NCBI RefSeq assembly: GCF_024868665.1 | Contig: NW_026634395.1 | Span: forward strand, 1 to 64,000 | Direction: 5' to 3' | Length of the DNA stretch: 64,000 nt | Source: Triplophysa rosa | Lineage: Eukaryota > Chordata > Actinopteri > Cypriniformes > Nemacheilidae | In this document: positions 1,396-62,027 of the stretch, piece by piece | Layout: every line of letters starts with the position of its first letter | Position numbering within the stretch: position 1 is the stretch's first letter | The notes under the pieces: model-generated | What the model was told of the DNA's origin: nothing | The model's database searches: none | The model's input: the letters and a program-made list of their open reading frames with translations, nothing else | Position numbers and translations under genes: made by a program

Positions 1396-2620
1396 TACAC
1401 TCACCTAAAGGATTATTAGGAACACCTGTTCAATTTCTCATTAATGCAATTATCTAATCAACCAATCACATGGCAGTTGCTTCAATGCATTTAGGGGTGT
1501 GGTCCTGGTCAAGACAATCTCCTGAACTCCAAACTGAATGTCAGAATGGGAAAGAAAGGTGATTTAAGCAATTTTGAGCGTGGCATGGTTGTTGGTGCCA
1601 GACGGGCCGGTCTGAGTATTTCACAATCTGCTCAGTTACTGGGATTTTCACGCACAACCATTTCTAGGGTTTACAAAGAATGGTGTGAAAAGGGAAAAAC
1701 ATCCAGTATGCGGCAGTCCTGTGGGCGAAAATGCCTTGTTGATGCTAGAGGTCAGAGGAGAATGGGCCGACTGATTCAAGCTGATAGAAGAGCAACTTTG
1801 ACTGAAATAACCACTCGTTACAACCGAGGTATGCAGCAAAGCATTTGTGAAGCCACAACACGCACAACCTTGAGGCAGATGGGCTACAACAGCAGAAGAC
1901 CCCACCGGGTACCACTCATCTCCACTACAAATAGGAAAAAGAGGCTACAATTTGCACGAGCTCACCAAAATTGGACAGTTGAAGACTGGAAAAATGTTGC
2001 CTGGTCTGATGAGTCTCGATTTCTGTTGAGACATTCAAATGGTAGAGTCAGAATTTGGCGTAAACAGAATGAGAACATGGATCCATCATGCCTTGTTACC
2101 ACTGTGCAGGCTGGTGGTGGTGGTGTAATGGTGTGGGGGATGTTTTCTTGGCACACTTTAGGCCCCTTAGTGCCAATTGGGCATCGTTTAAATGCCACGG
2201 CCTACCTGAGCATTGTTTCTGACCATGTCCATCCCTTTATGACCACCATGTACCCATCCTCTAATGGCTACTTCCAGCAGGATAATGCACCATGTCACAA
2301 AGCTCGAATCATTTCAAATTGGTTTCTTGAACATGACAATGAGTTCACTGTACTAGAATGGCCCCCACAGTCACCAGATCTCAACCCGATAGAACATCTT
2401 TGGGATGTGGTGGAACGGGAGCTTCGTGCCCTGGATGTGCATCCCACAAATCTCCATCAACTGCAAGATGCTATCCTATCAATATGGGCCAACATTTCTA
2501 AAGAATGCTTTCAGCACCTTGTTGAATCAATGCCACGTAGAATTAAGGCAGTTCTGAAGGCGAAAGGGGGTCAAACACCGTATTAGTATGGTGTTCCTAA
2601 TAATCCTTTAGGTGAGTGTA
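1396..2620 (+). mobile_element. Intact Tc1/mariner transposon, DD36E type
   Basis: The ends are perfect inverted repeats: TACACTCACCTAAAGGATTA at the left and its reverse complement at the right, extending to GGAACACC, 31 bases each. They are flanked by the TA target duplication (1394-1395 and 2621-2622). The element is 1225 bp and holds one uninterrupted transposase ORF. Perfect terminal repeats plus an open ORF suggest a young, possibly mobile copy. It sits in the degraded spacer of an old LINE. Confidence 0.95.
1546..2586 (+). CDS. Tc1/mariner transposase (DD36E), full length
   Basis: This is a 346-residue cut-and-paste transposase starting at ATG 1546, the first in-frame Met inside the left repeat. 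Residues about 1-50 form a paired-type helix-turn-helix (SISQSAQLLGFSRTTISRVY); a second HTH follows to about 120 with a basic GRKC block between. The DDE catalytic domain has Asp155 (WSDESRF), Asp246 (QQDNAPCH) and Glu283 (PDLNPIEHLW). There are 36 residues between the second Asp and the Glu, not the 34 of Tc1 and Sleeping Beauty. The length and all three acidic residues are intact, and there is no frameshift or stop. The spacing fits the DD36E group described in animals under the name Incomer; that family name is from memory. Confidence 0.95.
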   Translation: MGKKGDLSNFERGMVVGARRAGLSISQSAQLLGFSRTTISRVYKEWCEKGKTSSMRQSCGRKCLVDARGQRRMGRLIQADRRATLTEITTRYNRGMQQSICEATTRTTLRQMGYNSRRPHRVPLISTTNRKKRLQFARAHQNWTVEDWKNVAWSDESRFLLRHSNGRVRIWRKQNENMDPSCLVTTVQAGGGGVMVWGMFSWHTLGPLVPIGHRLNATAYLSIVSDHVHPFMTTMYPSSNGYFQQDNAPCHKARIISNWFLEHDNEFTVLEWPPQSPDLNPIEHLWDVVERELRALDVHPTNLHQLQDAILSIWANISKECFQHLVESMPRRIKAVLKAKGGQTPY

Positions 2621-8492: not shown

Positions 8493-10050
8493 CAGTGGCT
8501 TGCAAAAGTATTCATCCCCCTTCATTTTATTCACATTTTGTTATGCTGCTGCCTTATCTTAAACTACTTAAACAATTTTTTTTTTTTTACAATATTCTAC
8601 ACTCCATGCACAATAATGACAAAACAAAAAACTGATTTTTGACAGCTTTGCCAATTTATTAAAAATAAAAAACAAAAATAAGTACATTGCTTAAGTATTC
8701 ATACCCCCACCTCAGAAAATGGTTATAGCGCCTTTACAGACTCAAATCTTTTTGGGTATGATGTGAAAAGCTTTACACATCTGCATTTGTCAATTTTCTG
8801 TCATTCTTCACCTAAGATCCTATCAAACTCTATCAGGTTGGATGGAGATCATCAGTAGACAGACATTTTCAGGTTTCTACAGAGATGTTCAGTTGGGTTC
8901 AAGCACTAGCTGGGCCACTCAAGGACATAGACAGAGTTGTCCATAAGCCACTCTTGCATTGTTTTAGTTGTGTGCTTAGGATCATTGTCATGTTGGAGAA
9001 TGAACCTTCTGCCCTGTCCGAGGTTCTGAATGTTCTGGGCTAGGTTTTCATGATCATTATCTCCGTAATTTGTGTACAGTCCCTGAAGCTGAAAAACACC
9101 CCCACATCATGATGCTGTTTACACAACACTTAACTGTTAAGACGGTATTGTACAGGAGTTGAGCAGTGCTTGTTTTTCTCCAGACATGATGCATGAATCT
9201 GAGATTCATCAGACCAGAATATCTTGTTTCTGACAGTTTGAAAGATTTGTTGAAGTATGTTTTTGCATATTTCAAGTTTCCATGTGTCTTCACTGAGCAA
9301 AGGCTTGACTCTGGCCACTAAGCCATAAAGCCCAGATTGGTGGAGTGTTGCAGTGATGTTTCTCCTTCTGTAAGTTTCTCCCATCTCCATATATGATCAT
9401 GGAGCTCAACCAGAGTAATCATCAGCTTCTTGGTCACCGCACTAACCAAGACCCTTCTCCATCGATGGCTCAGTTTGGACAGGAGGTCAGCTCAAGTAAG
9501 AGATCTGGTGGTTCCAAACCTCTTTCATTGAGGATAAATGGAGGCTACATGCTTCTGTGAATCTTCAATACAGCAGTTTTTTTCAGAAGTCTTCCCCAGA
9601 TCTGTGCCTTGATACAATCCTGTCTCCGAGCTCTACTGGCAGTTCTTTTGACCTCATGTCTTGGTTTTTACTTTGATATGCATTTTCAGCTGTTGCACCC
9701 TTTATAGAGAGGTATGTGCCACTCCAAATCATACTTATTCAATTGAATTTGGCACAGGTTAACTCCACTCGAAGTGTATAAACATCAACAAGCAAAACTA
9801 ATGCTTCTGAGCTAAATTTCAAGTGTCCCAGAAAAGGGTATGAATACTAATGCAAATGTACTTACTTCAGTTTTTAATTTTTAATAAATTTGCAAAGTTG
9901 TCACAAACCAGTTTTTTTTTGTTTTGTCATTATTGTGCATGGAGTGTAGATTAATGCAATTTTTTTTAATTTAAAGTAGTTTAAGATAAGGCAGCAACAT
10001 AACCAAATTTGAATAAAATGAAGAGGGATGAATACTTTTGCAAGCCACTG
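8493..10050 (-). mobile_element. Tc1-like transposon inside gypsy RT
   Basis: The ends are CAGTGGCTTGCAAAAGTATT at the left and its inverted match AATACTTTTGCAAGCCACTG at the right, flanked by TA at 8491-8492 and 10051-10052. Long inverted repeats of about 200 bp (ending in the GTTTTTTGTTTTGTCATTAT-type block) are recognisable on both arms. The 1558-bp element carries a decayed transposase on the minus strand. Excision in silico restores the gypsy reading frame exactly. Confidence 0.95.
9057..9700 (-). pseudogene. Decayed Tc1 transposase
   Basis: On the minus strand two overlapping frames share the gene. One reads NITATLHQSGLYGLVARVKP (second HTH and linker) and NKIFWSDESQIHASC (first catalytic Asp, WSDES). 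The other reads VNSIMMWGCFSASGT. The segments lie in different frames, showing at least one frameshift. The region that should hold the second Asp and the Glu (9000-9060 and lower) is degraded. It cannot make active protein. Confidence 0.8.
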
Positions 10051-10683
10051 TATATCTCAAAGCTAGACTTATTGAAGGGATATTGGCAGGTTCCTTTGAC
10101 GGAACGTGCCAAGGAAATTTCGGCCTTCGTGACACCTGATGCTTTTCTGGAGTATGAAGTTGTGGCTTTTGGGATGAAAAATGCACCCAGTACTATTCAA
10201 CGTCTCGTTAACATTGTTTTATCTGGTATTTCTGGATGCGAGGCTTATTTGGATGATATCATCTTATATAGCGTGTCATGGCTGAATCATTTAAATTTGC
10301 TTCGAGAAGTTTTTCAGCGCCTGGTAGATGCGAGTCTTACCGTTAATCTCGCAGAATGCGAATTTGGTAAGGCCACACTAATTTATCTGGGGAAAATTGT
10401 CGGACAAGGTCGACCAGTCGGTGCCAAAGTTGAAACTATTTTCGAGTTTCCACCTCCCACTGATCGAAAACAGTTGCGCCGATTTTTGGGAATGGTGGGT
10501 TACTACCGCTCGTTCTGTAAGAACTTTGCGACTGAATGCAAAGAATGCTGTGAAAACAAATCTGCATTGTTTCTCCTCTTGATCTTTTATTTTTTAAAAA
10601 TCACAAAAATGCAATGTTTCATTGAAGAAAAAAAATTAAATTAGGGGGAAATCCCATTATGAAATAAATGTTTTTCTCTAATA

Positions 10684-31308: not shown

Positions 31309-32160
31309 ATGGCACAAGGACTTCGCAAAATCGACTCCCTGGTCTTTGACGAGAACATCGCGGACAATTGGATTAAGTTTAAGCGCGAGTGGCGCATATA
31401 CAGCAACGCCGGTCTTTCTGCAGCAACTGAAAAAGTGAAAGCGTACACGTTTCTGAACCTCGCTGGTCCCGATGCCCAGGATAAATATGACACATTCACT
31501 TTCATGGAGGAGGAAAATCCGGAAGATTCAGAGGTATACTGGTAAAGAAATTTGAAGAAATTTGCCTGCCAGTAAAGAATGTAATTATGGACAGACATGC
31601 ATTCAATACGACAAACCAGAAGCCACACGAAACAATCCAGTCATACGTTGCCACGTTAAAAACACTTGCCAGAAAATGTGAATTTGGCGCGCTGCACGAC
31701 GAACTGATAAGAGATCGAGTGGTATGTGGTATTCAAAATGACACTGTCCGCACACAAATGCTGAAAGAAAAACATCTAACTTTAAACTCAGCTATCGAAA
31801 TATGCATGCTTCATGAACAATCTGAAAAAGGGAACAAAGAAATAAAAAAAGAAGCAGGTTCCACAGAAATAAAGAAGGAAAGCGAAGTTTGTGCTGTGCA
31901 ATATTCTACGTGCTTGAACTGTAATGGCCAGCATTCATATGACCGCAGCAGCTGTCCAGCTTTTAACAAGCGCTGCAACGCATGTGGAAAATGGAATCAC
32001 TTCTCTAAATGCTGCAGATCAAGCAAAACACGCACCTTCAACAGACCAGGACAAGGTCCATCTCAGGCAGGCAGGGCACCCCACACCATACACAGAGGAG
32101 GGCTGACACATAGGATAAGTGAACTAGATGCACAGATTGCATACGAACCAGCAGACCTAT
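31309..32160 (+). pseudogene. Gypsy gag with zinc knuckles, frameshifted
   Basis: ATG 31309 opens MAQGLRKIDSLVFDENIADN, a Ty3/gypsy-type capsid start (NWIKFKREW block). The frame hits TAA at 31543, and the gag trace continues in another frame from about 31540 (CLPVKNVIMDRHAFNTT, then ETIQSYVATLKTLARKC), so one frameshift separates them. A C-rich nucleocapsid follows near 31915-32010: CLNCNGQHSYDRSSC and CNACGKWNHFSKCC, two zinc-knuckle-like motifs that would bind the RNA genome. Downstream it runs on into protease without a stop. Confidence 0.85.
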
Positions 32161-34793
32161 TCTACTGTGAAAGTGTAGAGGAGCCGGCTGAAAAAGGGGA
32201 GATATTTACTGTCCTGTCCACCTCCAACACAGGGAAGCAACTTAAGGTAAAGATTGACACTGGAGCCCGGTGCAATGTATTGCCCAGAGGCGTTCTCCAG
32301 CACATCGACCCAGGCGCTAATGTGGACCACAACCATGTAGTCAACCTTGTGGCTTATGGCGGTCAGATAATAAAGACTCTAGGTGTTACCAATGTAAACT
32401 TCACATGCGGGACATTACAATTTCATGTTGTTGACAGTGATGTAAAACCTCTACTGGGCCTCAGAGACAGCGTTAACCTAGGCTTTGTGCAAATTGGTCC
32501 AAATGTGCATGCTCTCCAGCAGGGGGCCCCTGAGCTCGCAGAATACAAAGATCTCTTTGACTGCAGCACTATAGGCAAACTGCCTGTAGTATATCACATG
32601 CGCTTAGACCCCTCTGGGCAACCTGCAATATGTGCTCCCAGACGAGTGCCATTAGCAATGAGAGACAAAATAGTCAATGAACTCAACAGAATGACTAAAC
32701 TGGGAGTCATTAAGTCAGTTCAGGAGCCCACTGAGTGGGTGTCTTCTATGGTGGCTGCACGTAAAAAAGATGGTGCCGTAAGACTGTGTATTGACCCTGT
32801 TCATCTCAACAAAGCTCTCCTCAGGCCGCATCATCCTATGAAAACAGTAGAACAGGTGATCGCTGACATGCCCGGAGCAAAGGTGTTCAGCATCCTTGAT
32901 GCAAAGTATGGATTCTGGCAGGTGCCACTCAGTGAGGAGTCATCAAAACTAACCACCTTTATGACCCCGGTGGGCCGATATGCCTTCCTCCGAATGCCAT
33001 ATGGAATATCCACAGGCAGTGAAGTTTTCCAAAGGTGAATGGAGCAACTTTTTGAAGGACAACCATGTGCAATTGTTGTTGATGACATCCTCGTTTGGGG
33101 CAGCACAAGAGAAGAGCATGATTTACGCCTCAGGCAGGTCATGGACAGAATACGCACCGTGAACCTCAAGCTGAACCCCGACAAGTGCCGTTTCCGGGTG
33201 TCTGAGGTGTCATATGTGGGTCATCTCCTAACAGACCAAGGCATAAAGCCCGACCCTACAAAGACAGATGCAGTCCGTTCCATGCCAAACCCAAAGGACG
33301 AGCATGATGTTCAACGGTTCCTTGGAATGACAAATTATTTGTCTAAATTCATCCCCGGCTATAGTGAAATCACAGCACCCCTGCGTCAACTCCTCCTTCA
33401 GGATGTGGAATGGAGCTGGCAGGAACACCACGTGGCAGCTTTCACCAGACTTAAAGACCTCCTCATAAGTCCTCCTATACTCCAGTACTTTGATGTACAC
33501 CAGCCAGTAGTGTTGTCTGCAGATGCCTCTCAGCATGGCCTGGGTGCTGTATGCCTTCAAAAAGACAAACCAGTGGCGTTTGCCTCAAGAGCACTTACGG
33601 AGACCGAGTCACACTACGCTCAGATAGAGAAGGAGCTGTTGGCCGTGGTCTATGCTTGTAAAAAATTTCATGACTACATATAAGGCCGTCCAGTGACTGT
33701 TGAAACTGATCATCAGCCCCTCATCACTATTCTGAGAAAACCACTACACTCAGCCTCTGCACGTCTTCAGATGATGATGCTCAAGCTGCAGCGCTATAAT
33801 CTCAATGTCATTTACAAGAGAAGCAAAGAGCTGTACCTAGCAGATGCTCTCTCACGTGCACACCTGCCCTCTACTGACTGGGCTGAAACCAGTGAAGACT
33901 ATGAGGTGATGACAGTGGAAGCCCTCTCCTCAAGAAGAGTTGAGGAACTCAGACAGGAAACACAGGCAGACCCTTTATGCAGGCGCCTGTCAGAGGTCGT
34001 TGCCGTGGGCTGGCCTGACTCATCAAAGAAGCTGCCACATGACCTCAGACAGTTTTATGCCATAAGAGATGAGCTTACATTCGACAATGGGTTGCTGCTC
34101 CGGGGTCAGCGTTTCATCATTCCCCACTCGCTGCAACACTATTATGTCAAACAGCTGCATCAAGGACACCCAGGCCTAGAAGCAACAAAGCGCAGGGCCA
34201 GAGAAACCATGTTTTGGCCCACCATATACCAAGACATCTCCAGATGCACTCCTTGTAATGCCCTCAAGCCGCACCAAACTAAGGAGCCCCTTCTACTACA
34301 TGATATACCAGACTTGCCGTGGGCCCTTACGGCAGCGGATGTTTTTGAGTGGGGGGGGGAACACCTGGTGCTCGTCGACTCGTACTCTGGTTGGTTTGAA
34401 GTAGACCAGCTCCCTAACATGACCAGTGCGACCATCATAACCAGGCTAAAGCGCCACTTTGCCACCCATGGAGCTCCTCAGCAGCTAATGACTGACAATG
34501 CAGCATATTTCACAAGCAGGGAGTTCCAAGAATTTGCCCGCATATGGGATTTCTGCCATGTCACCAGCAGTCCCCACTACCCCCAGTCAAATGGGCTAGC
34601 TGAGAGAGCTGTACGCTCAGCCAAACACCTTCTGGAAAAGTGTGCACGTGATGGAACTGATGTGTATGCGGCACTACTCAATCTACGTAATATACCAAGA
34701 GATGGGCTGCCCTCACCAGCGCAGCGTCTACTTTCTCGGCGCACCAAGACCCTTATTCCCATGACCAAAGCCATGTATGTGCCAAAGGTATAG
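32161..34793 (+). pseudogene. Gypsy pol: PR-RT-RNaseH-IN with stop codons
   Basis: Protease has the active-site DTGA at about 32256. RT includes KVFSILDAKYGFWQVPLSEE (the catalytic Asp block is ILDAK), FLRMPYGIS and AIVVDDILVW (VVDD motif near 33078). RNase H has LSADASQHGLGAV. Integrase shows a zinc-binding CTPCNALK end, then AADVFEW, MTDNAAYF and NGLAERA as the D, D and E blocks. TGA at 33036 falls within the RT where Trp is expected, and TAA at 33681 follows HDYI in RNase H. A frameshift near 34790 separates the integrase tail. At least three lesions make it defective despite 98% LTR identity. Confidence 0.92.
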
Positions 34794-43580: not shown

Positions 43581-44575
43581 ACATGCATGTGTTTGGGCTG
43601 TGGGAGGAAGCTGGAGCACTCGGAGTGGTGTCGGAGTTTGTTAGATCTGTGTGAATTAGCCTAGGGAATAGGATTTTTTTTCATAGGTGTTTGGATTATC
43701 ACTAAAAATAAACTGTTATCTACAAAAGACACTTACACATTTGTGACCCTGCCTGTGAAAACCGAGCTAAAGTATTTTTTGTGTGATTTGCTATTTTTTT
43801 TACATAAAATCATCCTACATAAATTAAGAAAAAACATCGTGAAAATATAATCTTGATATCTTTAATATTGACATGTCAAAGAGTTGTTACACTTTGTTAT
43901 CAGAAAATCATAATTTTGAGAAATGCCAATGTATAAACAAGCTTATATTTAAAGCTAAAACACACTTAAACCATAATTATCCTGTCTATGTGCTGAGATT
44001 CTCCCGTTTCAATTATATAAATGACGGCGGAAACTCTTGAAGCGTTGTAAAATAAAATATTTATGATTATGCACATGTACAAAAAACATGGAAACAAATG
44101 GGGGTACCACAATAGCTTAATTGTAGCAACAATAAACCACTAGAACGATTTGTATCATTTTATTAGTAATATAAATGTAAAAAAATCAAAAATGTCTCTA
44201 AATCTAACTCTATAGCGCCACCACCACTTCAAACTTCAACATACATTTTTGCCTATAACTTTTGATCCACACATCCTAGAAACAAAATTATGTTCCTGCT
44301 CATGGCAATTCGAATGCACTGTATGAAGTCATTTTCAATCATAAAAAATTCTGCCAATTTTGATTTTTTGCAACACCTACTTTTTCGAAGTCTTTGTCCA
44401 ATTTGCACGAAATTTGGTATGTAGCATCTAGAAACAGTGCTAACTAAAAGTTATTAAAAAATTGATTGTCCAGTCGGTACTTGTATATCTGTCACCACAC
44501 AAGGCAGATAAACAATGCCACATAAGAACTGAAGTGAACTGGAGATTTAATGGGGTGAACAGGTGCACAATAGAC
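43581..44575. other. No gene recognised; repeat-like GTGACCCTGCC start
   Basis: TGTGACCCTGCCTGTGAAAA at 43743 resembles a fish repeat end, but no inverted partner is present. The remainder is AT-rich. Confidence 0.35.
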
Positions 44576-44778
44576 AGGTAACATCCACAGGTAAGCATAC
44601 ATCCACAGGTAAGCATACATCCACATGTAAGCATACATCCACAGGTAAGCATACATCCACAGGTAAGCATACATCCACAGGTAAGCATACATCCACAGGT
44701 AAGCATATATCCACAGGTAAGCATATATCCACAGGTTTACATCCGCCGGTAAGCATGCATACATCCACAGGTATACAT
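44576..44778. repeat. 18-bp minisatellite
   Basis: Eleven or so tandem units of ACATCCACAGGTAAGCAT with few variants (ACATGT, GCATATATCC, a diverged GTTTACATCCGCCGG unit near 44735). Open frames on both strands (STGKHT and LPVDVC repeats) are artefacts of the 18-bp period. Confidence 0.95.
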
Positions 44779-45140
44779 TGTGGGAATATTTTTTAGATAA
44801 AAGTATGATTTAAATATCAATATAATCAATAAGTGTTTTCTTTCATTTGTTTCATTAAGCTGTGTGTTTTGGTCATGTGCTTTCTATTTCACTCAGTGGA
44901 AAGTACTGGGGCAAACAAAGAAAACAGAGAAAGTTGGGGGTTGGAGTCGTAAATTATCTAGATAAACACACACACATATAAAGAGTCACAAAGAAAAATA
45001 AATGTTATGAATCAATCCATTGCATATGTTCTAAGTATAATCATGAGTTGTGATGTGTTTTAATGAATCATAGGATTAAGAAACAACGCTATATAATTAA
45101 AAACATTAGATGATTAAGTGTTTTCTTTTTACTAAAAGAA

Positions 45141-45515
45141 TGTTAAGAATGTTGGTGTGTTGTCCGGCCACAATAAACTGTTTTTAGGAGACCACTCCTT
45201 GGGGGAGGGAGAACATTCCTAAGGACTGGCGATTGACCACAGGATATACGTTTTGAAATGTTATTTTACAGGAACTAAGAAAAAGGACTTCACGGTGATT
45301 GGTGGAAACGGAGCAGCACTCCTTAAAAGGCAGAGGAGGAGTCAGAAGATACGAGCGACGTCACATACTTTATAAATATGGGTGTTTTTGAATATTTGAG
45401 GTTGTTGGTTTTTCGGAGGTCGTCTGACAACCCAAAGCTTTGTTACAGCTTTTCACATCTGATAATAAAACCTCATATTACTTTTGAGCAAATTGTCTCT
45501 TCAAATTTCTGAACA
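45141..45515 (+). repeat. Probable 5' LTR of endogenous retrovirus
   Basis: The proposed LTR runs from TGTTAAGAATGTTGG to ATTTCTGAACA, giving TGTT...AACA termini. It has TATAAATA at 45371-45378 and AATAAA at 45464-45469, spaced as in a U3-R region. No 3' LTR is available to confirm the boundaries, and the primer-binding site is not obvious (TGCAGGACTGCC follows). The presence of an LTR is likely; the exact ends are inference. Confidence 0.5.
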
Positions 45516-45630
45516 TGCAGGACTGCCTTTAAAGTCAAACAAAGCGTGACCCACGTGATTAAACGATTTCAGCAGCATTCGTGAGGAAAGAACGGAACGA
45601 TTCGGTTCAACACACAGGTCGACCTAAAAA

Positions 45631-45775: not shown

Positions 45776-46225
45776 AGACGTTGCGTCACACAAGGAAATT
45801 GTGAGACGTTGCGTCAACCATAAATTCTGTCAGGTTAGAGTCCCTTGGTTGAAAAATACATAAATTCTGTCAGGTTGAGTCCTGGTTAAGAACATAAATT
45901 CTGTCGGGTTAGAGTCACGATTGAAATATATCGTAAATTCTGTCAGGTTTTGAGTCCTTTGGTTAAAGAAACATAAATTCTGTCGGGTTAGAGTCCCACG
46001 ATTGAAATAATATCGTAAATTCTGCGGTTTGAGTCCCTTTGGTTAAAGAAATCATAATTCTGTCGGGTTAGAGTCCCTCGAGTCGGCGAACTCGTAAAGG
46101 AATATTCCAAAATTGTTTGTTGTGTGTTAAATGTTAAGAGTTGAATGTGAATACTGATAAAGGCGATTGAAGAAAAGACGTTGCGTCACAGAGACTTGTT
46201 GAGAAACTGAGACGTTGCGTCATAA
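45776..46225 (+). repeat. Repeat-rich retroviral leader
   Basis: Seven tandem units of about 38 bases, built on CATAAATTCTGTCGGGTTAG plus AGTCCC and TTGGTTAAAGAAA, start at about 45819, 45858, 45894, 45932, 45970, 46013 and 46051. Spacer halves alternate between TTTGGTTAAAGAA and ACGATTGAAATA. The block is bracketed by four copies of GACGTTGCGTCA, a 12-base near-palindrome (near 45778, 45804, 46179 and 46212). A role in packaging, translation or dimerisation is possible but not shown. Confidence 0.85.
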
Positions 46226-46328
46226 TTAGAGTACTTAATTTGGAAAACTGGTCACAAAGACCACCTTATACTATAAATTGGAATACATAAGGCTGTAAAA
46301 GATTGTGAACAGTACAATTGTGTGTAAA

Positions 46329-48032
46329 ATGGCTGAATTTCAGAAAGAATGTGATGAATACGGATGTCCGCCAGTAATGGTGCAGTGGCAAAATGTTACA
46401 AATATGCTTTTAGCACAGACTGAGCCAGAAGACGGAAAGAAAAGACAGAAAGAGATTGATAAATGTTGGATAGCGTTGTGTGATGATCAAGGGTGGGGCA
46501 GAGAGGAAAAAATTGTGACTCCTCTTGCGCCAAAAGTTAGAGAGATGGAAAAGAAAGCCCATAATAAGTTACGTAGACATGTTGAAGAGAAAGACAAAGT
46601 TAAGTGGTATAATGCAGGAAAACACAGAAGTGAAGAAGAAAGTTTAAAAAAGAACTTGAGGGTATGGACTAGAGTGGCATTAACAGCTACGGCACTCAGC
46701 ACACAGAAACAGGACGTGAACATCTCAGCAGCTAGAGAGAGAAATGAAGACAAAACAGGAAGCATTCAGACTAACCCAACAGCTCCTCCCCTTCAGAAAC
46801 ACATACCTTCAATATATCCTTCATTAAGCCATCCTCCGTCATATGAGCCGTCTCACCAGCAGATGGTGGTAGAGATAAACAGTGGAGAAGTAGATGTAGA
46901 CTTAACAGGAGTTACAAACCAGATACAGGCTTTGGAACAGAGATTTGACCACCTGGTTAAGGCAGTAAAGAAGGATGTGGATGACACATTACATAAAGCC
47001 AAAGCAGCCATAAAAGAAGTGGAGAACACTCAGAATAGTGAGGGAGCGGACTCAACTGATGAGGGAGGGGAAGCTGATGATGACAGTGAGGAAGAGGATA
47101 AGAGTAAGGAACCATTACGCACACCAAAACCAAAACATACATCAACACCCCGTTGTCTTAACAAACAGGAAGAATCACTTAAGGTGCAAATTACGGGAGA
47201 CATGATTGTAGATGGACCTATAGCAACTAGATTGAGAAGCAAGCAGGGTCCATGGGAAAGGGAGTTTGTTTTATATGGTCCAGGTAACCAGCTAATGGCA
47301 CCTCAAATACAGGCACCGTTGATGCAGAGACCTGGAGGGAATTTGCAGTACCAACCATGGTCACATAGTGATATGACAGCAATAGTGAGTAAACTGCCAC
47401 CTATTACCTCTGGGGGCAGCAGATGGCTAAGTAAATTAACCATCCTATGTCATGGAACTTGTTTGGCTTTGGGTGACTTGAGATGCCTGTTAGGACAAAT
47501 ACTGACAGCCTCACAAATGCAGGGTTTAGAAGTGGAAGCTGGCATTGTACGAGAACCAAATGAGACTCTATTCGTCAGGGTAAGCACTGATGTTGGCGGA
47601 GCATTAAGACGCTTATATCCTGTACCACCAACTGTGTACCAAAACATTAAATTCCGTATCAAACCAGGTGAGACTGGAGCAGCCTATTATTTTCGTTGTG
47701 CTGCTGAATGGGAACAAATGGTTGAAGAAAATAGTCTAATTAATCCGGTAACAAGAGACATATTCAGAACAGCAGTCATGACAGGAGCTCCAAATGGAGT
47801 TAAACAATCCATGGAGAATAACCCAGACATTCCAGTTGCAACTAATGAAGTATGGGAAAGACATTTAGTGCACCACACTGATAGGGCTGTAGAGAGGGTC
47901 AGCAAAGAAGAAGAAGAATTAGAAAAGGTCAAAACACAACTGTTGAAATTACAATTAGAGAAGGCTAAGAGCTGGGAAAATAAGAGAATAAACTATAAAG
48001 TGATTGTGATGAAAAGGAGATATAGAAAATAA
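46329..48032 (+). CDS. gag: Endogenous retrovirus gag
   Basis: The frame opens at 46305 with GTG; the first ATG is 46329 (MAEFQKECDEY), giving 567 residues. The N-terminal part (to about 150) is basic and matrix-like. A PPSY late-domain motif lies at about residues 169-172. A coiled-coil-like VTNQIQALEQRFDHLVKAVK segment and an acidic stretch (about 245-268) follow. A capsid-like region starts around 320 (SKLPPITSGG, then LGDLRCLLGQIL). The C-terminus is Lys/Glu-rich and stops at 48032 without any Cys-His zinc knuckle, so it may be truncated by a frameshift. There are no other lesions. Gag would form the particle core; the assignment rests on position before pol, the late motif and layout. 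Confidence 0.75.
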   Translation: MAEFQKECDEYGCPPVMVQWQNVTNMLLAQTEPEDGKKRQKEIDKCWIALCDDQGWGREEKIVTPLAPKVREMEKKAHNKLRRHVEEKDKVKWYNAGKHRSEEESLKKNLRVWTRVALTATALSTQKQDVNISAARERNEDKTGSIQTNPTAPPLQKHIPSIYPSLSHPPSYEPSHQQMVVEINSGEVDVDLTGVTNQIQALEQRFDHLVKAVKKDVDDTLHKAKAAIKEVENTQNSEGADSTDEGGEADDDSEEEDKSKEPLRTPKPKHTSTPRCLNKQEESLKVQITGDMIVDGPIATRLRSKQGPWEREFVLYGPGNQLMAPQIQAPLMQRPGGNLQYQPWSHSDMTAIVSKLPPITSGGSRWLSKLTILCHGTCLALGDLRCLLGQILTASQMQGLEVEAGIVREPNETLFVRVSTDVGGALRRLYPVPPTVYQNIKFRIKPGETGAAYYFRCAAEWEQMVEENSLINPVTRDIFRTAVMTGAPNGVKQSMENNPDIPVATNEVWERHLVHHTDRAVERVSKEEEELEKVKTQLLKLQLEKAKSWENKRINYKVIVMKRRYRK

Positions 48033-49397
48033 TAATAAAAGCAATAACTATTAAAAAAGCTAAGGTTTGTTGTAATAAAAAGTAATGGCTCCAAAAGGCA
48101 GAGAGAGAGACAAATGGAGGGTGTGTGTGCAGAACCCCCTCCTTATGTGACCTCTAAGGTCAAATTTCCCTAACTCACAGGAGTTGTAAAAGTTTCTGGA
48201 GTTAAGAGATGAAAGACATATGGGGCCATGTAAGACCAAAGAGCAAACGTTATTAGGGGCAGAGTTAAATAGGAAAATTAAGGAGATAGAAAAGTTTGTG
48301 GATAAGACATGAATAATTAAGAAAAAGCAGACCACTAGCAGGCAGAGAGACAGAGGGAGGAAGGGAAAAAGAGCCATCATTTGATGAAGGAAGGAAGGTG
48401 TCACAGGAAATAGATCATTTTAAACCACGGACTGAGAAACCTTTATTTTGAAATAAAGATACAGTTACCAAGAGACCCTATGTGTTCTGGGCCACATCAG
48501 ACCTTGAGAGGCTAATGCTCACTCTCCCCCTGACATGCACAAAGCGGCTGGGAATTGGATTAAGGTGGTATTAGCAAAACAAGGGCAAACTTTAACATCG
48601 GAATTTGACAGAGATGTGGACTCTCATTACATGAGTGGGATTATTTTGATGCACGTGACGCAAGCACTGCATGCTGAATTTCAAGCCATAGAGGACCCTA
48701 AGGACACAAAAAGAAAAAAAAGGGGGAACAGCTTTGAGAAAGAGAAAACCCAAAGACACACGCCCAGAGACATTAAAACAGAGACTTAAACTCCATGGCA
48801 CATCTGAGTGAAGTTTTTGGCACCAAGTGATTCATGGCTCAAAAAGAAAATGGACTGAACAATGAGATATTGGCCAGCCTGAAGGAAAAAACTGCCCCCA
48901 CCAGTCCATGAAACAGCCGCCTGAGGGTGAAAGGGAGAGGTGATAGTAGACTTTTGAGGTCCAGGTCAAAGCCCAATAAAACCATTAAAAAAAATAAAAA
49001 TAAAAAAAAAGACAAGGATATGGGGAAAGCCCAGTAAATAAAAAAAAAAAAATAAACGAGATGTGACCAACCTTTCCTTATATCAAATCAGACTCCTATT
49101 AATCTGTTAGAAAGAGATGCATTGTGTAAATTGGGTCTTCAAATTTGGCGTTCTACAGAAGTATAGATAGACATAGACATGAAAGAAACTCAAATGATGA
49201 TCACTGTGCGAAAAGCAAACGTGTACAGGATAGGACAGATGGAGAAAGATGTAAGGCTGGCAGTTGATAAATGGGGTAAATTCACTGAAACTCAGCACAG
49301 TTACCGAAATCAGAATTCCACTGTACAATGATAGAGGACCCCCTGAGAAATTCAAATCATACTAGGTAAACAATGAACAGCTATAAAATAACTGAGA
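48033..49397 (+). pseudogene. Degraded gag-pro junction with protease remnant
   Basis: No long frame crosses this 1.4 kb. Bases about 49086-49157 read TPINLLERDALCKLGLQI, the C-terminal block of a retroviral protease (the LLGRD-like motif). Upstream I find no DTGA/DSGA active site. The stretch around 48980-49045 holds A-rich runs (AAAATAAAAATAAAAAAAAA). An 84-codon frame at 48535-48789 is lysine-rich and might derive from nucleocapsid, but no zinc knuckle is visible. The protease is therefore broken in this copy. Confidence 0.6.
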
Positions 49398-52300
49398 ATG
49401 AATTATAAACAAATGGTTCAGCGTAGCAAATTCTGTACTACATACTGCATATCCTTATATGTAGGGAAAAATTGGGAAACAACAGATGTAGGATTTTGTA
49501 ACATTAAACCTGTAAGTTTCAGCATAAAAACCAATTCACCCATTTGGGTCCCACAGTATCATAACAAACCAGAGGCAGAACAAGGTGTAGCCACCACTGT
49601 CGCTGGACTAATGGAAAGGGGAGTTATAACACCCTATATTTCAGATTGGAACACACCAATTTTTCCTGTGCCAAAACCAGGAACTAACAAGTACAGATTG
49701 GTACATGATCTAAGAAATATCAATTCCATTGTGGCAACACCCACAATGACTGTGCCAAACCCATATATTTCATTATCTACCTTGACACCAGCACATCAAT
49801 GGTTCACATGCATTGATTTGGCAAATGCATTCTTTTGTATTCCAATTGCAGAAGAGTGCAAAGCATGTTTGGCTTTTACATACAGGGGGTGCCAGTATTC
49901 CTATAACAGATTACCTCAGGGATTTATTCTATCCCCAGGAATTTTTAATCATGTTTTGAAACAACAGCTACAGGACTGTAGCTTACCTGAAAACTGTGTC
50001 ATGATCATGTATGTTGATGACCTATTGCTGGCTGCCACAACAGAAAAGGCATGCTTGGAAGCCACCAGACTTGTGTTACTTCAGTTGCATAAGTCTGGGT
50101 TTAAGGTAAGCAAGGACAAACTGCAGGTTTGCAGACCTTGTGTTACATTTTTGGGTCGACTGATCACGGCACAGGGTTCAACTTTGACAGGAACACAAAG
50201 ACAGGGTATACTGAGCCATCCCAAGCCAACCACAGTGAAAGACATGTTGTCATTTCTAGGTTTGACAGGATTCAGTAGACATTACATTCCCATGTATGTT
50301 TCACTAACCTTGCCTTTAAGACAATTGATCAAGGAACATGGCATGAAAAATCTGAAAGCAGAACTTCAGTGGACACCAGAGGCTGAACGGACGTTCATTG
50401 ACCTTAAGACACAATTAGCTCATGCAGTGCACCTGAGCTGTGCTAATTATGAGTTACCATTTTTCCTGGATACCTCTGAGTCAGGATCCAGTGCACACGG
50501 TGTCCTATTCCAAAAAGACCAGGGTAGGAGAAAAGTTCTGATGTATGCCAGTGTACTTTTAGACTGTGTGGAGCAGAGACAACCTCTTTGTTCTAGGTTC
50601 GCAGCAGGCCTGGCTAAGGTAGTACACAAGACTTCACACATTGTTATGGGTCATCCATTAACAATCCTGACAACACATTCAATCATGTCTTTTGTAAATT
50701 CATCATCATTCACGTTTTCTCCTTTGCGACAAAGACGCATTGCCAAGATTCTGACCAGTCCAAATCTAACATACACACATGAAGGCATAAACATGGCTGA
50801 TCTGATGACTGAAGGCCAACCACATGATTGTGCACCCATCACTGAGAAAGCATCTAAAATCAGGGAAGATTTGTCAGCTGTTCCATTGACTAGCCCACCA
50901 CCAGTTAGAACACTTTTCACAGATGGTTGTTGTTTCAGAGCAGAAGATGGTAGCCTGAAAGCAGCATATGCAGTAGTGGAACAGGTAGGGAGTTCATTAG
51001 TGACCAGAGAATCTGAATTGTTGACAGGAAAACAGTCAGCACAGAGAGCAGAGATGATTGCAGTAACCAGAGCCTTGTACTATGCTGGTGAGACCCGTGT
51101 GAACATATATTCCGATTCAGCATATGTTGTAACAGCTGTCCACGTGGAAATGCCCTTATGGCAAAGATGTGGGTTCACCACATCTACAGGTCGACCAATT
51201 ACGCATGCATGTGAAGCCAGAGACCTTTTAGAGGCTCTGATGATACCCAAAGAGGTAGCAGTAATTAAATGTCCAGGACATTCCAAAAATGATTCCCATA
51301 TCACTGATGGAAACAATGCAGCTGATCTAGCTGCCAAAACTGCGGCTGGCTATGTTGCCAATCAGCAGGTGGTGAGATCAGACGGAGCTTGTACTGATCT
51401 TTTGCCAAGATTCACTAGAGAATATCTGATAAAAGAACAACAGAAATCTGCCCCTGAAGAACAATCAGTTTGGTCACAGCATGGAGGCATCTGTGCTAGT
51501 GATGGTCTATGGCAAGCGCCAGACGGACGTCCGGCATTGCCTGTGTCACTGTCCGGCTCAATGTTAACTCAAGCTCATGGTCTCAGCCATGTCAATGATA
51601 AACAAATGATGAGAGTTCTTGAACATTGGTGGCATCCATTTTTGCAATCAATGGTGTCAGGTCACGTGACAAGTTGTTCTATCTGTCAGGAACATAATGT
51701 GAAACCCAGTATCAAACCAAAGAAAGGTTCATTTCCTTTGACATCAGGCCCAGGGGAGGAAATTGTGATTGATTTCACAGACATGATCACAAAAGTACAT
51801 GGTAAACGCTATGTTTTGGTGATTGTTGATTATTTCACTGGTTGGCCTGAAGCATATCCTGTCGGCCGAGAGGACAGTACGGCCGTGATAAAGTGTCTAA
51901 TCAACCATTACATTCCACATTATGGGTTCCCCAGACGTGTCAGATCGGATAACGGCACTCACTTTAAAAATGACCATTTGAGAGTTGTTGAACAGGCCCT
52001 AGGCCTCACGCATGCGTACGGAGCAGTCCATCATCCGGAAAGCCAAGGTAAGGTTGAGAGGTTGAACTTAACGTTAAAACTAAAATTGGCAAAAATCTGT
52101 GCACAGACAAAATTGAACTGGCTATCTGCATTGCCAATTGCTCTAATGTCTATCCGTTCTTCTGTTAACAGGATCTCAGGCTTTACACCCTTTGAATTGC
52201 TTACAGGTCGTCAATTTCCAGGTCCCAGTACGGCGTTGAGAGAAGACACCGTGCAACCATTGTCTCATACTGTGTATTTTGATAAACTAACAGCTCTGAT

Positions 52301-52532
52301 TCGAACCTTTTCCCATCAGGTGACTCCTGTACCAGTGCAACCTGAGGAACTGCCATTACCAGTCACAACAGACTGGGTCAGGATCAGAAAATTCCGCAGA
52401 AAGTGGAATGAACCACGGTGGTCTCAACCTATACGTGTGACAGCTCGCACCTCACATTGTGTGCAACTCCAAGGCAAAGGAGACACTTGGTTCCATTTAA
52501 CATCCTGTGTAGCTTGTGTACCCCCCTTCTAG
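49398..52532 (+). CDS. pol: Endogenous retrovirus pol: RT, RNase H, integrase
   Basis: One uninterrupted frame of 1044 codons from ATG 49398; an in-frame TAA lies nine bases upstream, so the fusion to protease is lost. RT: catalytic Asp140 (CIDLANAFF), LPQGFILSPG at 172-181 and YVDD at 205-208. RNase H: Asp509 (LFTDG), Glu552 (QRAEM), Asp573 (YSDSA), Asp643 (NAADLA). Integrase: zinc-binding His727 and His731 with Cys760 and Cys763, and Asp792 (VIDFTD), Asp851 (RSDNGTHF) and Glu887 (GKVERL), the last two separated by 35 residues. A WVRIRKFRRK...PRW end resembles the gammaretroviral integrase C-terminus. All active-site residues are retained, unusual for an old insertion. The stop TAG at 52530 overlaps the macro ORF by about 20 bases. 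Confidence 0.93.
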   Translation: MNYKQMVQRSKFCTTYCISLYVGKNWETTDVGFCNIKPVSFSIKTNSPIWVPQYHNKPEAEQGVATTVAGLMERGVITPYISDWNTPIFPVPKPGTNKYRLVHDLRNINSIVATPTMTVPNPYISLSTLTPAHQWFTCIDLANAFFCIPIAEECKACLAFTYRGCQYSYNRLPQGFILSPGIFNHVLKQQLQDCSLPENCVMIMYVDDLLLAATTEKACLEATRLVLLQLHKSGFKVSKDKLQVCRPCVTFLGRLITAQGSTLTGTQRQGILSHPKPTTVKDMLSFLGLTGFSRHYIPMYVSLTLPLRQLIKEHGMKNLKAELQWTPEAERTFIDLKTQLAHAVHLSCANYELPFFLDTSESGSSAHGVLFQKDQGRRKVLMYASVLLDCVEQRQPLCSRFAAGLAKVVHKTSHIVMGHPLTILTTHSIMSFVNSSSFTFSPLRQRRIAKILTSPNLTYTHEGINMADLMTEGQPHDCAPITEKASKIREDLSAVPLTSPPPVRTLFTDGCCFRAEDGSLKAAYAVVEQVGSSLVTRESELLTGKQSAQRAEMIAVTRALYYAGETRVNIYSDSAYVVTAVHVEMPLWQRCGFTTSTGRPITHACEARDLLEALMIPKEVAVIKCPGHSKNDSHITDGNNAADLAAKTAAGYVANQQVVRSDGACTDLLPRFTREYLIKEQQKSAPEEQSVWSQHGGICASDGLWQAPDGRPALPVSLSGSMLTQAHGLSHVNDKQMMRVLEHWWHPFLQSMVSGHVTSCSICQEHNVKPSIKPKKGSFPLTSGPGEEIVIDFTDMITKVHGKRYVLVIVDYFTGWPEAYPVGREDSTAVIKCLINHYIPHYGFPRRVRSDNGTHFKNDHLRVVEQALGLTHAYGAVHHPESQGKVERLNLTLKLKLAKICAQTKLNWLSALPIALMSIRSSVNRISGFTPFELLTGRQFPGPSTALREDTVQPLSHTVYFDKLTALIRTFSHQVTPVPVQPEELPLPVTTDWVRIRKFRRKWNEPRWSQPIRVTARTSHCVQLQGKGDTWFHLTSCVACVPPF

Positions 52533-53070
52533 GTCTCTTGCTGACACTGGTTTGGACCTGAGGACTCAGGTCCAAGAGAGGGAGGATACACAGAGTGGGA
52601 ACGGTAACACAGACACTGAAATTGCTATTGAACAACACCAACAGCTCCAAATTATACACAAAACAGGTGACATTTTCACAAGTCCACACACAGAACCATT
52701 GGCTCACTGTGTAAGTGCTGACTGTGCATACGGAGCAGGTATAGCTAAACAGTTCAAACAACGATACGGTACACAGAAAGTAATTGATCAAAATAAACAA
52801 CCAGGTGAATGTGCAGTGACTACAGAAGAAGACGGCAGAATCATTTTTCACTTAATAACTAAAGAACAATGTACTGATTTACCAACATATGACTGTTTCA
52901 CAGAGAGCCTAAAACACATGAGAGATTGGTGTGTGGATAACAGAGTAAAAACAGTCTCAGTACCCCGGCTAGGGTGTGGTCTAGATAAACTAGACTTCAA
53001 GAAAGTACAAAAGATTCTGAGTGAAGTGTTCACGGACGTGGACATACAAATAACCATTTATTCCTTATAA
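52513..53070 (+). CDS. TARG1/OARD1-like macro domain ORF in a retrovirus
   Basis: The open frame runs from just after TAG 52510-52512 to TAA 53068. It has no ATG before the domain (counting from GTG 52516 gives 184 residues). Residues about 45-184 form a complete macro domain of the TARG1/OARD1 type: GDIFTSP near 51-57, CAYGAGIAKQF at 70-80, LITK with Lys116, PRLGCGLDKL with Asp157 and a TIYSL end. Lys116 and Asp157 align with the catalytic Lys84 and Asp125 of human TARG1, which removes ADP-ribose from glutamate and deacylates O-acyl-ADP-ribose. There are no introns, stops or frameshifts. The 40-residue leader is acidic and polar. How translation starts (splicing, frameshift or fusion to pol) is open. 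It lies where env would be expected. Confidence 0.9.
   Translation, partial: LVYPPSRSLADTGLDLRTQVQEREDTQSGNGNTDTEIAIEQHQQLQIIHKTGDIFTSPHTEPLAHCVSADCAYGAGIAKQFKQRYGTQKVIDQNKQPGECAVTTEEDGRIIFHLITKEQCTDLPTYDCFTESLKHMRDWCVDNRVKTVSVPRLGCGLDKLDFKKVQKILSEVFTDVDIQITIYSL
52521..52532 (+). promoter_or_regulatory. Candidate 3' splice acceptor or slippage run before macro ORF
   Basis: CCCCCCTTCTAG is a pyrimidine tract ending in AG, close to an ideal acceptor; splicing there would join the leader donor (45634) to the macro ORF at 52533. The same C6 run also lies where the pol and macro frames overlap, so slippage by +1 could fuse macro to integrase. Both are inference. Confidence 0.45.
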
Positions 53071-53076
53071 TCAAGT

Positions 53077-53077
53077 N
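53077..53077. other. Single N: probable assembly break
   Basis: The only undetermined base in the window falls seven bases after the macro stop codon. It is exactly where retroviral sequence ends and a DIRS coding trace begins in mid-gene. A collapsed gap or misjoin is likely, so the virus 3' end (env, polypurine tract, 3' LTR) may simply be missing. Confidence 0.8.
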
Positions 53078-61180: not shown

Positions 61181-61991
61181 GTCATCACAACGACATGCCT
61201 CGTAACCTGCCCGAGAGGGACCCCTGTCAGTTTAAAGGTCATTGACGACCATTGGGTTAGGGTGCGTCTGCAGAGAGGCATAATGACCATCCGCCTGCTG
61301 CCGGTGTGCCACGCTCTCCAGGGAACTCGACTCTGTAGCCAGTGTTGGAGCGGTCTCATGTGCATCAACCCGAGGGGTATCACCCCCGCCGAGGATGCCA
61401 TGTGTCCCAGGAGCCTCTGAAGTTGTTTCAGGGGGACTGCTGACTGCTTGAAATGTCCCAGGCAGTTCAACACTGACTGAGCGCGCTCTGTAGTTAGTCG
61501 CGCTGTCATGGAGACAGAGTTGAGTTCCATACCAAGAAAGGGGATGCTCTGCATGGGGAGAGCTTGCTCTTTTCTCGGTTGACCTGTAGTCCCAATCGAT
61601 CTAGGTGCCGGAGCACTAGGTCCCTGTGTGTACACAACAGATCTCGCGAGTGTGTCAAGATGAGCCAGTCTTCGAGATAGTTTAGTACCCACACACCTCT
61701 CTCCCTGAGGGGAGTGAGGGCAGCTTCCCCGATCTTCGTGAAGACTCATGGGGACAGGGACAGACCGAACGGGAAGACTCTGTAAAGGTATGCCTGACCC
61801 TCGAAAGTGAACCGTAGGAACGGGCGATGACGAGGGAGAATCGAGACATGAAAGTAAGCATCCTTCAGGTCGATTGCCATGAACCAATCCTGACATCTGA
61901 TAGACGTCATGATGCGCTTCTGCGTGAGCATCCTGAACGGCAGCTTGTGCTGGTGCCTGTTCAGGGTACGCAGATCTAGAATGGGGCGCAA
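61084..61991 (-). pseudogene. DIRS reverse transcriptase, frameshifted
   Basis: MRPILDLRTLNRHQHKLPFR (61991) and MAIDLKDAYFHVSILPRHRP (first catalytic Asp block) open the RT. The frame changes near 61750. NYLEDWLILTHSR at about 61690 stands where YLDDWLI is normal, so the YxDD motif has lost its first Asp to Glu. The 270-codon frame 61084-61896 has FLGMELNS, LLGHMASSAG and VVVMTDASLQGG (start of RNase H). Several frames are mixed, so it is inactive. Confidence 0.85.
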
Positions 61992-62027
61992 CCCCCCATC
62001 GTTTTTGGGGGCGATGAAGTACGAGCT

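What the first reader, a model, noticed from the sequence alone, without database searches (positions are those of the whole stretch)
52513..53070. Retrovirus carrying a TARG1-type macro domain
Directly after the integrase of an endogenous retrovirus is a complete, open, intronless macro domain of the TARG1/OARD1 subfamily. The two TARG1 catalytic residues are kept (Lys116, Asp157 in the ORF). Macro domains that strip ADP-ribose are known in some RNA viruses (coronaviruses, alphaviruses), where they counter PARP-based immunity. I know of none as a standard retroviral part. The absence of introns suggests capture of a spliced host mRNA. A retroviral ADP-ribosyl hydrolase, possibly aimed at ADP-ribosylation defence, would be a new accessory function.
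Basis: partly seen in the sequence, partly recalled or inferred. Interest (0 to 1): 0.93.

Follow-up and report, generated by a model that had tools for sequence, protein, structure and literature searches.

The report
Fish retrovirus carrying ADP-ribose-removing enzyme domain
Retroviruses preserved in a fish genome, probably that of a loach, carry at the end of their polymerase-integrase protein a domain of a cellular enzyme that strips ADP-ribose tags; macro domains in fish retroviruses were already in print, but here the domain is seen to be a selected part of the virus.

Summary
Window 52645-53067 encodes a complete TARG1/OARD1-type macro domain (135 bits to human TARG1; predicted fold TM 0.95, target-normalised) with both catalytic residues. 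It is neither a stray pseudogene nor a separate accessory gene: in 47 of 49 loci with integrase, window included, the macro domain continues the integrase frame, so it is the C-terminal domain of Pol. A gamma-type env follows in two copies checked. The window copy is an exception: pol and macro frames differ, the protease region is decayed, and env and 3' LTR are not found. The genome has 152 matches to the ORF, some being pieces of one copy. The domain is under purifying selection like integrase (median omega per bin 0.14-0.29 against 0.11-0.17); K and D are kept in 50 of 50 loci. Retroviral macro rows form one clade apart from vertebrate OARD1. Most likely a virion-packaged ADP-ribosyl hydrolase; activity, packaging and target are untested. 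Prior art: a 2016 review, citing Basta et al. 2009, reports macro-domain ORFs in ray-finned-fish ERVs. New member of a known kind; interest 0.5.

The parts
44779..45541 (+). 5' LTR of the provirus (begins TG, ends CA)
   Evidence: Window 44777-45542 aligns over 766 positions at 98.0% to the 3' LTR of the copy on contig C250, L054; edges read by eye
45819..46081 (+). leader with short tandem repeats
   Evidence: repeat finder and self-comparison
46305..48032 (+). gag ORF, 575 aa
   Evidence: open frame; 45% over 226 positions to the N-terminal part of the Danio aesculapii protein P0044; no clear Pfam gag match
48033..49397 (+). protease region, decayed in this copy (stops in all three frames)
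   Evidence: P0036 residues 1-332 find no tblastn match in the window at E 1e-3; three-frame translation
49398..52532 (+). pol ORF: reverse transcriptase, RNase H, integrase
   Evidence: Pfam RVT_1, RNase_H, rve; 91.4% over 1015 positions to the Triplophysa rosa polyprotein P0036
52516..52644 (+). linker between integrase and macro domain (DLRTQVQERE motif), in the macro frame
   Evidence: the same linker joins integrase and macro in frame in relatives
52645..53070 (+). TARG1/OARD1-type macro domain with stop codon
   Evidence: 135 bits to human TARG1; predicted fold TM 0.95 to TARG1, target-normalised; K116 and D157
53077..53077 (.). single N; junction beyond which no env or 3' LTR is found in the window

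Best explanation
It is the C-terminal domain of the Pol polyprotein of a family of cypriniform-fish retroviruses (order: LTR, gag, protease-RT-RNaseH-integrase-macro, gamma-type env, LTR). Shown: the domain is TARG1-type, fused in frame to integrase in nearly all loci read, keeps the catalytic Lys/Asp pair, and is under purifying selection like integrase. Inferred: being part of Pol it is made at Pol level, packaged in the particle and delivered with RT and integrase; there, as TARG1 does, it removes ADP-ribose from Asp/Glu side chains or nucleic acid ends, so reversing PARP-made marks on the viral complex, the viral DNA or nearby host chromatin early in infection. Whether protease frees it from integrase is unknown. 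The window's own copy is defective.
For: Similarity and fold. In-frame Pol fusion: 8 of 8 listed pol proteins with at least 74% identity over the whole integrase query carry macro, whole or cut; integrase end and macro share a frame in 47 of 49 loci with integrase, 46 without a stop in the linker. Number: 152 matches in the genome. Catalytic pair: K in 50 of 50 and D in 50 of 50 loci; K in 33 of 35 and D in 24 of 25 database rows with a residue there. Selection: median omega per dS bin 0.14-0.29 for macro, 0.11-0.17 for integrase; bootstrap 95% upper bounds for macro at most 0.45 in 6 of 6 chosen pairs. Mean identity 75.5% macro, 76.4% integrase, 58.3% linker, over 91 of 105 pairs long enough. 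Env downstream. PARP1 has been reported to affect retroviral integration, with conflicting results (PMC7050484, passages); TARG1 acts on Asp/Glu-ADPr and nucleic acid ends (PMC7050489, passages).
Against: No activity, substrate, expression, cleavage or packaging was or could be tested. Of 63 positions conserved in host OARD1, 15 have another residue as the ERV consensus, so substrate range may have changed. A few database copies lack K (2 of 35) or D (1 of 25); these may be decayed copies. The 20 loci L031-L050 were picked by me and are mostly stop-free, which favours intact copies. Acting early rather than late is inference from position alone.
Confidence: 0.5

Rival explanations
1. Counter-defence in the cytoplasm: the domain strips ADP-ribose put on viral or host proteins by interferon-induced PARPs, as coronavirus and alphavirus macrodomains do, and its place in Pol is only a convenient site of expression.
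For: Viral macrodomains are reported to counter PARP-mediated restriction (title and abstract start of PMC6521996 and PMC7729036, listing); the domain keeps the hydrolase residues.
Against: A Pol-fused copy should be made in small amounts and packaged (general knowledge of retroviruses), which suits an early act better. No PARP link was tested.
Confidence: 0.3
2. A reader: the domain binds ADP-ribose or PAR and tethers the integration complex to PARP-active chromatin, with catalysis secondary.
For: Fused to the C-terminus of integrase; the ALC1-like class contains readers as well as erasers (PMC7050489).
Against: Both catalytic residues are kept in 50 of 50 loci, which a pure reader would not need.
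Confidence: 0.12
3. Passenger: a captured host sequence without function, amplified with the virus.
For: Several copies are identical or nearly so over the ORF, which needs no function.
Against: Purifying selection between subfamilies; domain about as conserved as integrase while the linker is not.
Confidence: 0.04
4. A retropseudogene of host OARD1 that lies next to pol by chance.
For: TARG1-type and intronless; a join with cypriniform OARD1 is not rejected (p-AU 0.36).
Against: Same position and frame behind integrase in 47 of 49 loci and in proteins of other sources, among them Triplophysa dalaica; one ERV clade apart from 24 vertebrate OARD1 rows (100/100).
Confidence: 0.01

Closest known systems
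Ray-finned-fish (epsilon-like) ERVs with macro domain ORFs (Basta et al. 2009, as cited by Naville & Volff 2016)
   Same: Fish ERVs carrying a macro domain of cellular kind besides the standard genes (passage).
   Different: Basta et al. was not held, so I cannot say whether it is the same lineage, whether their ORF is fused to pol, or whether it is TARG1-type. The frame analysis, copies and selection test here are my own.
Cellular TARG1/OARD1
   Same: 41-46% identity to the human structures, same predicted fold (TM up to 0.96, target-normalised), Lys/Asp pair.
   Different: Fused to integrase through a variable linker; own clade; 15 of 63 host-conserved positions changed.
Macrodomains of coronaviruses, alphaviruses, rubella virus
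   Same: Viral macro domains; appear in the fold searches.
   Different: 13-17% identity in the listed rows; in RNA viruses, inside non-structural polyproteins.
Macro domains predicted in Kadipiro virus VP8, virga-like viruses and a Cressdnaviricota virus
   Same: Nearest named viral proteins in the viral fold library, 25-32% identity for the best rows.
   Different: Not retroviruses; not examined further, so their class is open.
Fish ERVs with gamma-type env (class I)
   Same: Pol nearest to gammaretroviral-type RT among solved structures (names of the top chains recalled as XMRV/MLV); TLV_coat env.
   Different: None of the other 112 pol proteins listed for the integrase query has a macro match at E 1e-3 (P0044-P0155); three of these (P0126, P0134, P0135) are cut pieces of the same kind.

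Membership tests
TARG1-type (ALC1-like) macro domain hydrolase | best match by sequence and fold to TARG1 rather than other macro classes | tested here: met
   TARG1 135 bits, next (5m3i, DarG by its title) 22.5 bits; TARG1 chains fill ranks 1-8 of the fold search
TARG1-type (ALC1-like) macro domain hydrolase | catalytic Lys84 and the acidic residue at 125 | tested here: met
   ORF K116 and D157 align to them; roles from PMC7050489, which writes Glu125 where the solved chain has D; the numbering offset is recalled
TARG1-type (ALC1-like) macro domain hydrolase | hydrolysis of Asp/Glu-linked ADP-ribose | not testable with these tools
   needs an enzyme assay
copy of a cypriniform host OARD1 | groups with cypriniform OARD1 | tested here: inconclusive
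   best tree puts all 16 ERV rows apart from 24 OARD1 rows; a join with cypriniform, otophysan or teleost OARD1 is not rejected (p-AU 0.36, 0.37, 0.39)
endogenous retrovirus | LTRs, gag, pol with RT and integrase, env | tested here: met
   LTR pairs in four of eight copies tried, pol domains, env TLV_coat in both copies scanned; the window copy itself lacks env and 3' LTR
fish ERVs with macro domains (Basta et al. 2009) | macro domain ORF in a ray-finned-fish ERV | tested here: met
   the kind is known from the review passage
fish ERVs with macro domains (Basta et al. 2009) | same virus lineage | not testable with these tools
   paper not held
genus Epsilonretrovirus | RT groups with walleye dermal sarcoma virus | not tested
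   no reference set was built

The most novel reading that the evidence does not exclude
A whole clade of cypriniform-fish retroviruses has an ADP-ribosyl hydrolase as a standard, selected, particle-borne domain of Pol, fused to integrase, which edits ADP-ribosylation of the incoming viral complex or its integration site.
Probability: 0.35. Interest if true: 0.8.

Novelty: new member of a known kind. Interest (0 to 1): 0.5.

Why it matters
If the domain is active, it would be a naturally selected link between ADP-ribosylation and retroviral infection, in a field where the role of PARP1 in integration has been disputed (PMC7050484, passages). It also gives a clear case of a host-type enzyme domain built into Pol that spread in many copies, so capture, recombination and selection can be studied in one genome.

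Tried and rejected
Rejected: chance-adjacent pseudogene; passenger; separate accessory ORF (see rivals). The different frame in the window was considered as programmed frameshifting and set aside, because relatives read through in one frame.

Led nowhere: scans of viral contigs with three queries and of genome contigs with two gave no relatives; PHROGs gave nothing for env; Rfam gave no match in the window. Rows dropped: seven of 47 before the second macro tree (P0030, Mytilus, Acropora, two bacterial rows, P0010, P0012); in the first tree with them the ERV clade had 94/98 and host rows needed 2 changes. In the integrase tree 46 of 77 non-macro rows were kept. L031-L050 were chosen by me among listed matches, mostly stop-free, so and the omega values lean towards intact copies. 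Not answered (tool busy): a search for the host's own OARD1 exons and one for integrase copies, to find any without macro.

Full report
What is there. The ORF 52516-53070 (+) is open for 184 aa. It matches human TARG1/OARD1 with 135.5 bits over residues 41-184; the next hit, a DarG macrodomain, has 22.5 bits. Pfam Macro is just below its cut-off, and NCBIfam gives DarG at 48.5 bits, far below its cut-off of 250. A model from a 26-row alignment (mean pLDDT 85.5, pTM 0.74) has TARG1 chains as its eight best solved matches, TM-score up to 0.96 by target length and 0.72-0.75 by query length. Residues 116 and 157 are K and D, aligned with Lys84 and residue 125 of TARG1, the catalytic pair according to the review PMC7050489 (passages).

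Its setting. It lies behind a pol ORF (RT, RNase H, integrase) whose best solved relatives are RT/RNase H p80 chains, recalled as XMRV; MLV chains follow in the list. Upstream are a gag-like ORF and a 5' LTR at about 44779-45541. The window copy is broken: the protease region has stops in all frames and no match to the protease part of P0036; pol and macro are in different frames; and right of the single N at 53077 nothing matches the downstream parts of eight other copies or the env parts of two fish proteins (P0080, P0124).

Whose genome. G000, the window's assembly, is unnamed, 684.8 Mb in 1038 contigs. The Triplophysa rosa proteins P0037 and P0036 are 100% identical over 377 and 324 positions to loci L031 and L015 of G000, and the contig given for P0037 has the length of C236, 264,974 bases. 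I infer that the window is from Triplophysa rosa, a cypriniform loach, or something very near; these two proteins are thus copies from the same genome, not another species.

Relatives in protein databases. The macro query found 35 proteins; two bear organism names, Triplophysa dalaica and a Brevinema MAG. The integrase query listed 120 of 125 proteins. All 8 with at least 74% identity over the whole query (P0036-P0043) carry the macro domain, whole or cut, in frame behind integrase; none of the other 112 has a macro match at E 1e-3. Among these 112, P0126 breaks off at the start of a macro domain, and P0134 and P0135 (76% over a third of the query) break off before it. The Danio aesculapii rows (70%) keep the QVQERE linker motif but have no macro in their annotated models, which may be wrongly spliced. 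In a tree of 58 integrase rows the 12 macro-bearing rows and the two Danio aesculapii rows make one clade (97/89); because Danio falls beside the short row P0016, the tree needs 2 changes, such as one gain and one loss or a faulty Danio model.

Copies in the genome. 152 matches to the ORF were reported; 150 of 180 candidates were scored, pieces of one copy count apart, and the list is cut. By my hand count of the rows shown, 65 run from residue 4 or earlier to 184, and 56 of these have no stop inside. Several lie in open frames of 1,000-2,600 aa. In 50 loci read (30 best matches, window included, and 20 chosen by me), integrase was found beside macro in 49; its end shares the macro frame in 47, with no stop in the linker in 46; the two exceptions are the window and L037, and L013 has no integrase. 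K and D are kept in 50 of 50. In database rows K is kept in 33 of 35 and D in 24 of 25.

Env and age. In the 5 kb downstream of macro in eight copies, a stop-free frame begins 135-187 bases after the domain in six. In L056 it is open for 650 aa and matches TLV_coat; in L053 the TLV_coat match lies in a second frame behind a stop; L056 also matches syncytin structures. The other env frames were not scanned. The two LTRs are 98.6%, 98.5% and 98.7% identical in three copies and 95.8% in a fourth; the other four of the eight copies gave partial, unclear or no pairs. So some insertions look young; I measured no clock.

Selection. Pairwise omega (Nei-Gojobori) for macro has medians of 0.14-0.29 over six dS bins, integrase 0.11-0.17. 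Six chosen pairs have macro omega 0.14-0.22 with bootstrap upper bounds at or below 0.45. dS is saturated in the deepest pairs (49 macro pairs had no finite dS; two integrase values rest on a cap), and pairs are not independent. Across 91 of 105 pairs of fused proteins that were long enough, mean identity is 76.4% for integrase, 75.5% for macro and 58.3% for the linker; macro exceeds linker in 85 of 91. Of 63 positions conserved in host OARD1, the ERV consensus keeps 48. The domain is therefore kept by selection in the replicating virus, about as strongly as integrase.

Origin. In a tree of 40 rows the 16 ERV macro domains form one clade with 100/100, apart from 24 vertebrate OARD1 rows. Holding them with cypriniform OARD1 costs 0.83 log units, p-AU 0.36; with otophysan or teleost OARD1 p-AU is 0.37 and 0.39. 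One capture is supported; its donor and date are not.

How it may work. Being fused to integrase, the domain should be made with Pol and enter the particle (inference from retroviral biology in general). TARG1 cleaves Asp/Glu-linked ADP-ribose, O-acyl-ADPr and ADP-ribose at nucleic acid ends and can release whole chains (PMC7050489). PARP1 has been reported to help, not to affect, or to repress retroviral integration and infection (PMC7050484, passages). I therefore favour an act early in infection on the viral complex, its DNA or nearby chromatin, over a late cytoplasmic act against PARPs; the evidence does not separate them.

Is it new. PMC4977317 (passage) says that epsilon-like sequences of ray-finned fish occasionally include ORFs for CNPase or macro domain proteins, citing Basta et al. 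2009, whose text was not held. PMC10499221 cites the same paper for the evolutionary relation of viral and cellular macrodomains (passages). Word searches inside a zebrafish ERV survey (PMC8672886), an Env review (PMC9967133), a review of fish mobile elements (PMC7599744) and a survey of viral macrodomains (PMC7729036) showed no retroviral macro domain. Ten paper searches, eight of them on retroviral or fish macro domains, listed nothing whose title or abstract start describes a TARG1-type domain fused to retroviral Pol, or selection on it, in a library that lacks most subscription papers and Basta et al. itself. I file it as a new member of a known kind.

Noticed in passing
P0017, P0038, P0043: Fish ERV pol-macro proteins are filed under bacterial MAG names (Brevinema, Cetobacterium, Plesiomonas): probably host DNA in fish-gut bins, and a trap for surveys of bacterial macro domains.
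   Followed up: partly
L031 with L050; L001 with L010: Integrase and macro have discordant divergence (dS 0.07 against 0.60; 0.37 against 0.04), pointing to recombination near the integrase-macro junction.
   Followed up: no
L002-L006: Five copies with macro identical to the window's share an integrase frame break at about the same place: amplified while defective, or duplicated segments.
   Followed up: no
window 44527-44796: 18-base minisatellite reaching the 5' edge of the LTR.
   Followed up: no
window 31587-34793: Another retroelement: RT, RNase H and integrase domains in three consecutive ORFs.
   Followed up: partly
window 1546-2586: Open 346-aa ORF of a Tc1/mariner-type transposase (HTH_Tnp_Tc3_2, DDE_3).
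   Followed up: partly
window 10009-10644 and 61542-62018: Further reverse transcriptase fragments, the second on the minus strand.
   Followed up: no
window 53077: Single N where provirus sequence ends and other sequence begins: an assembly join or a masked base is possible.
   Followed up: partly
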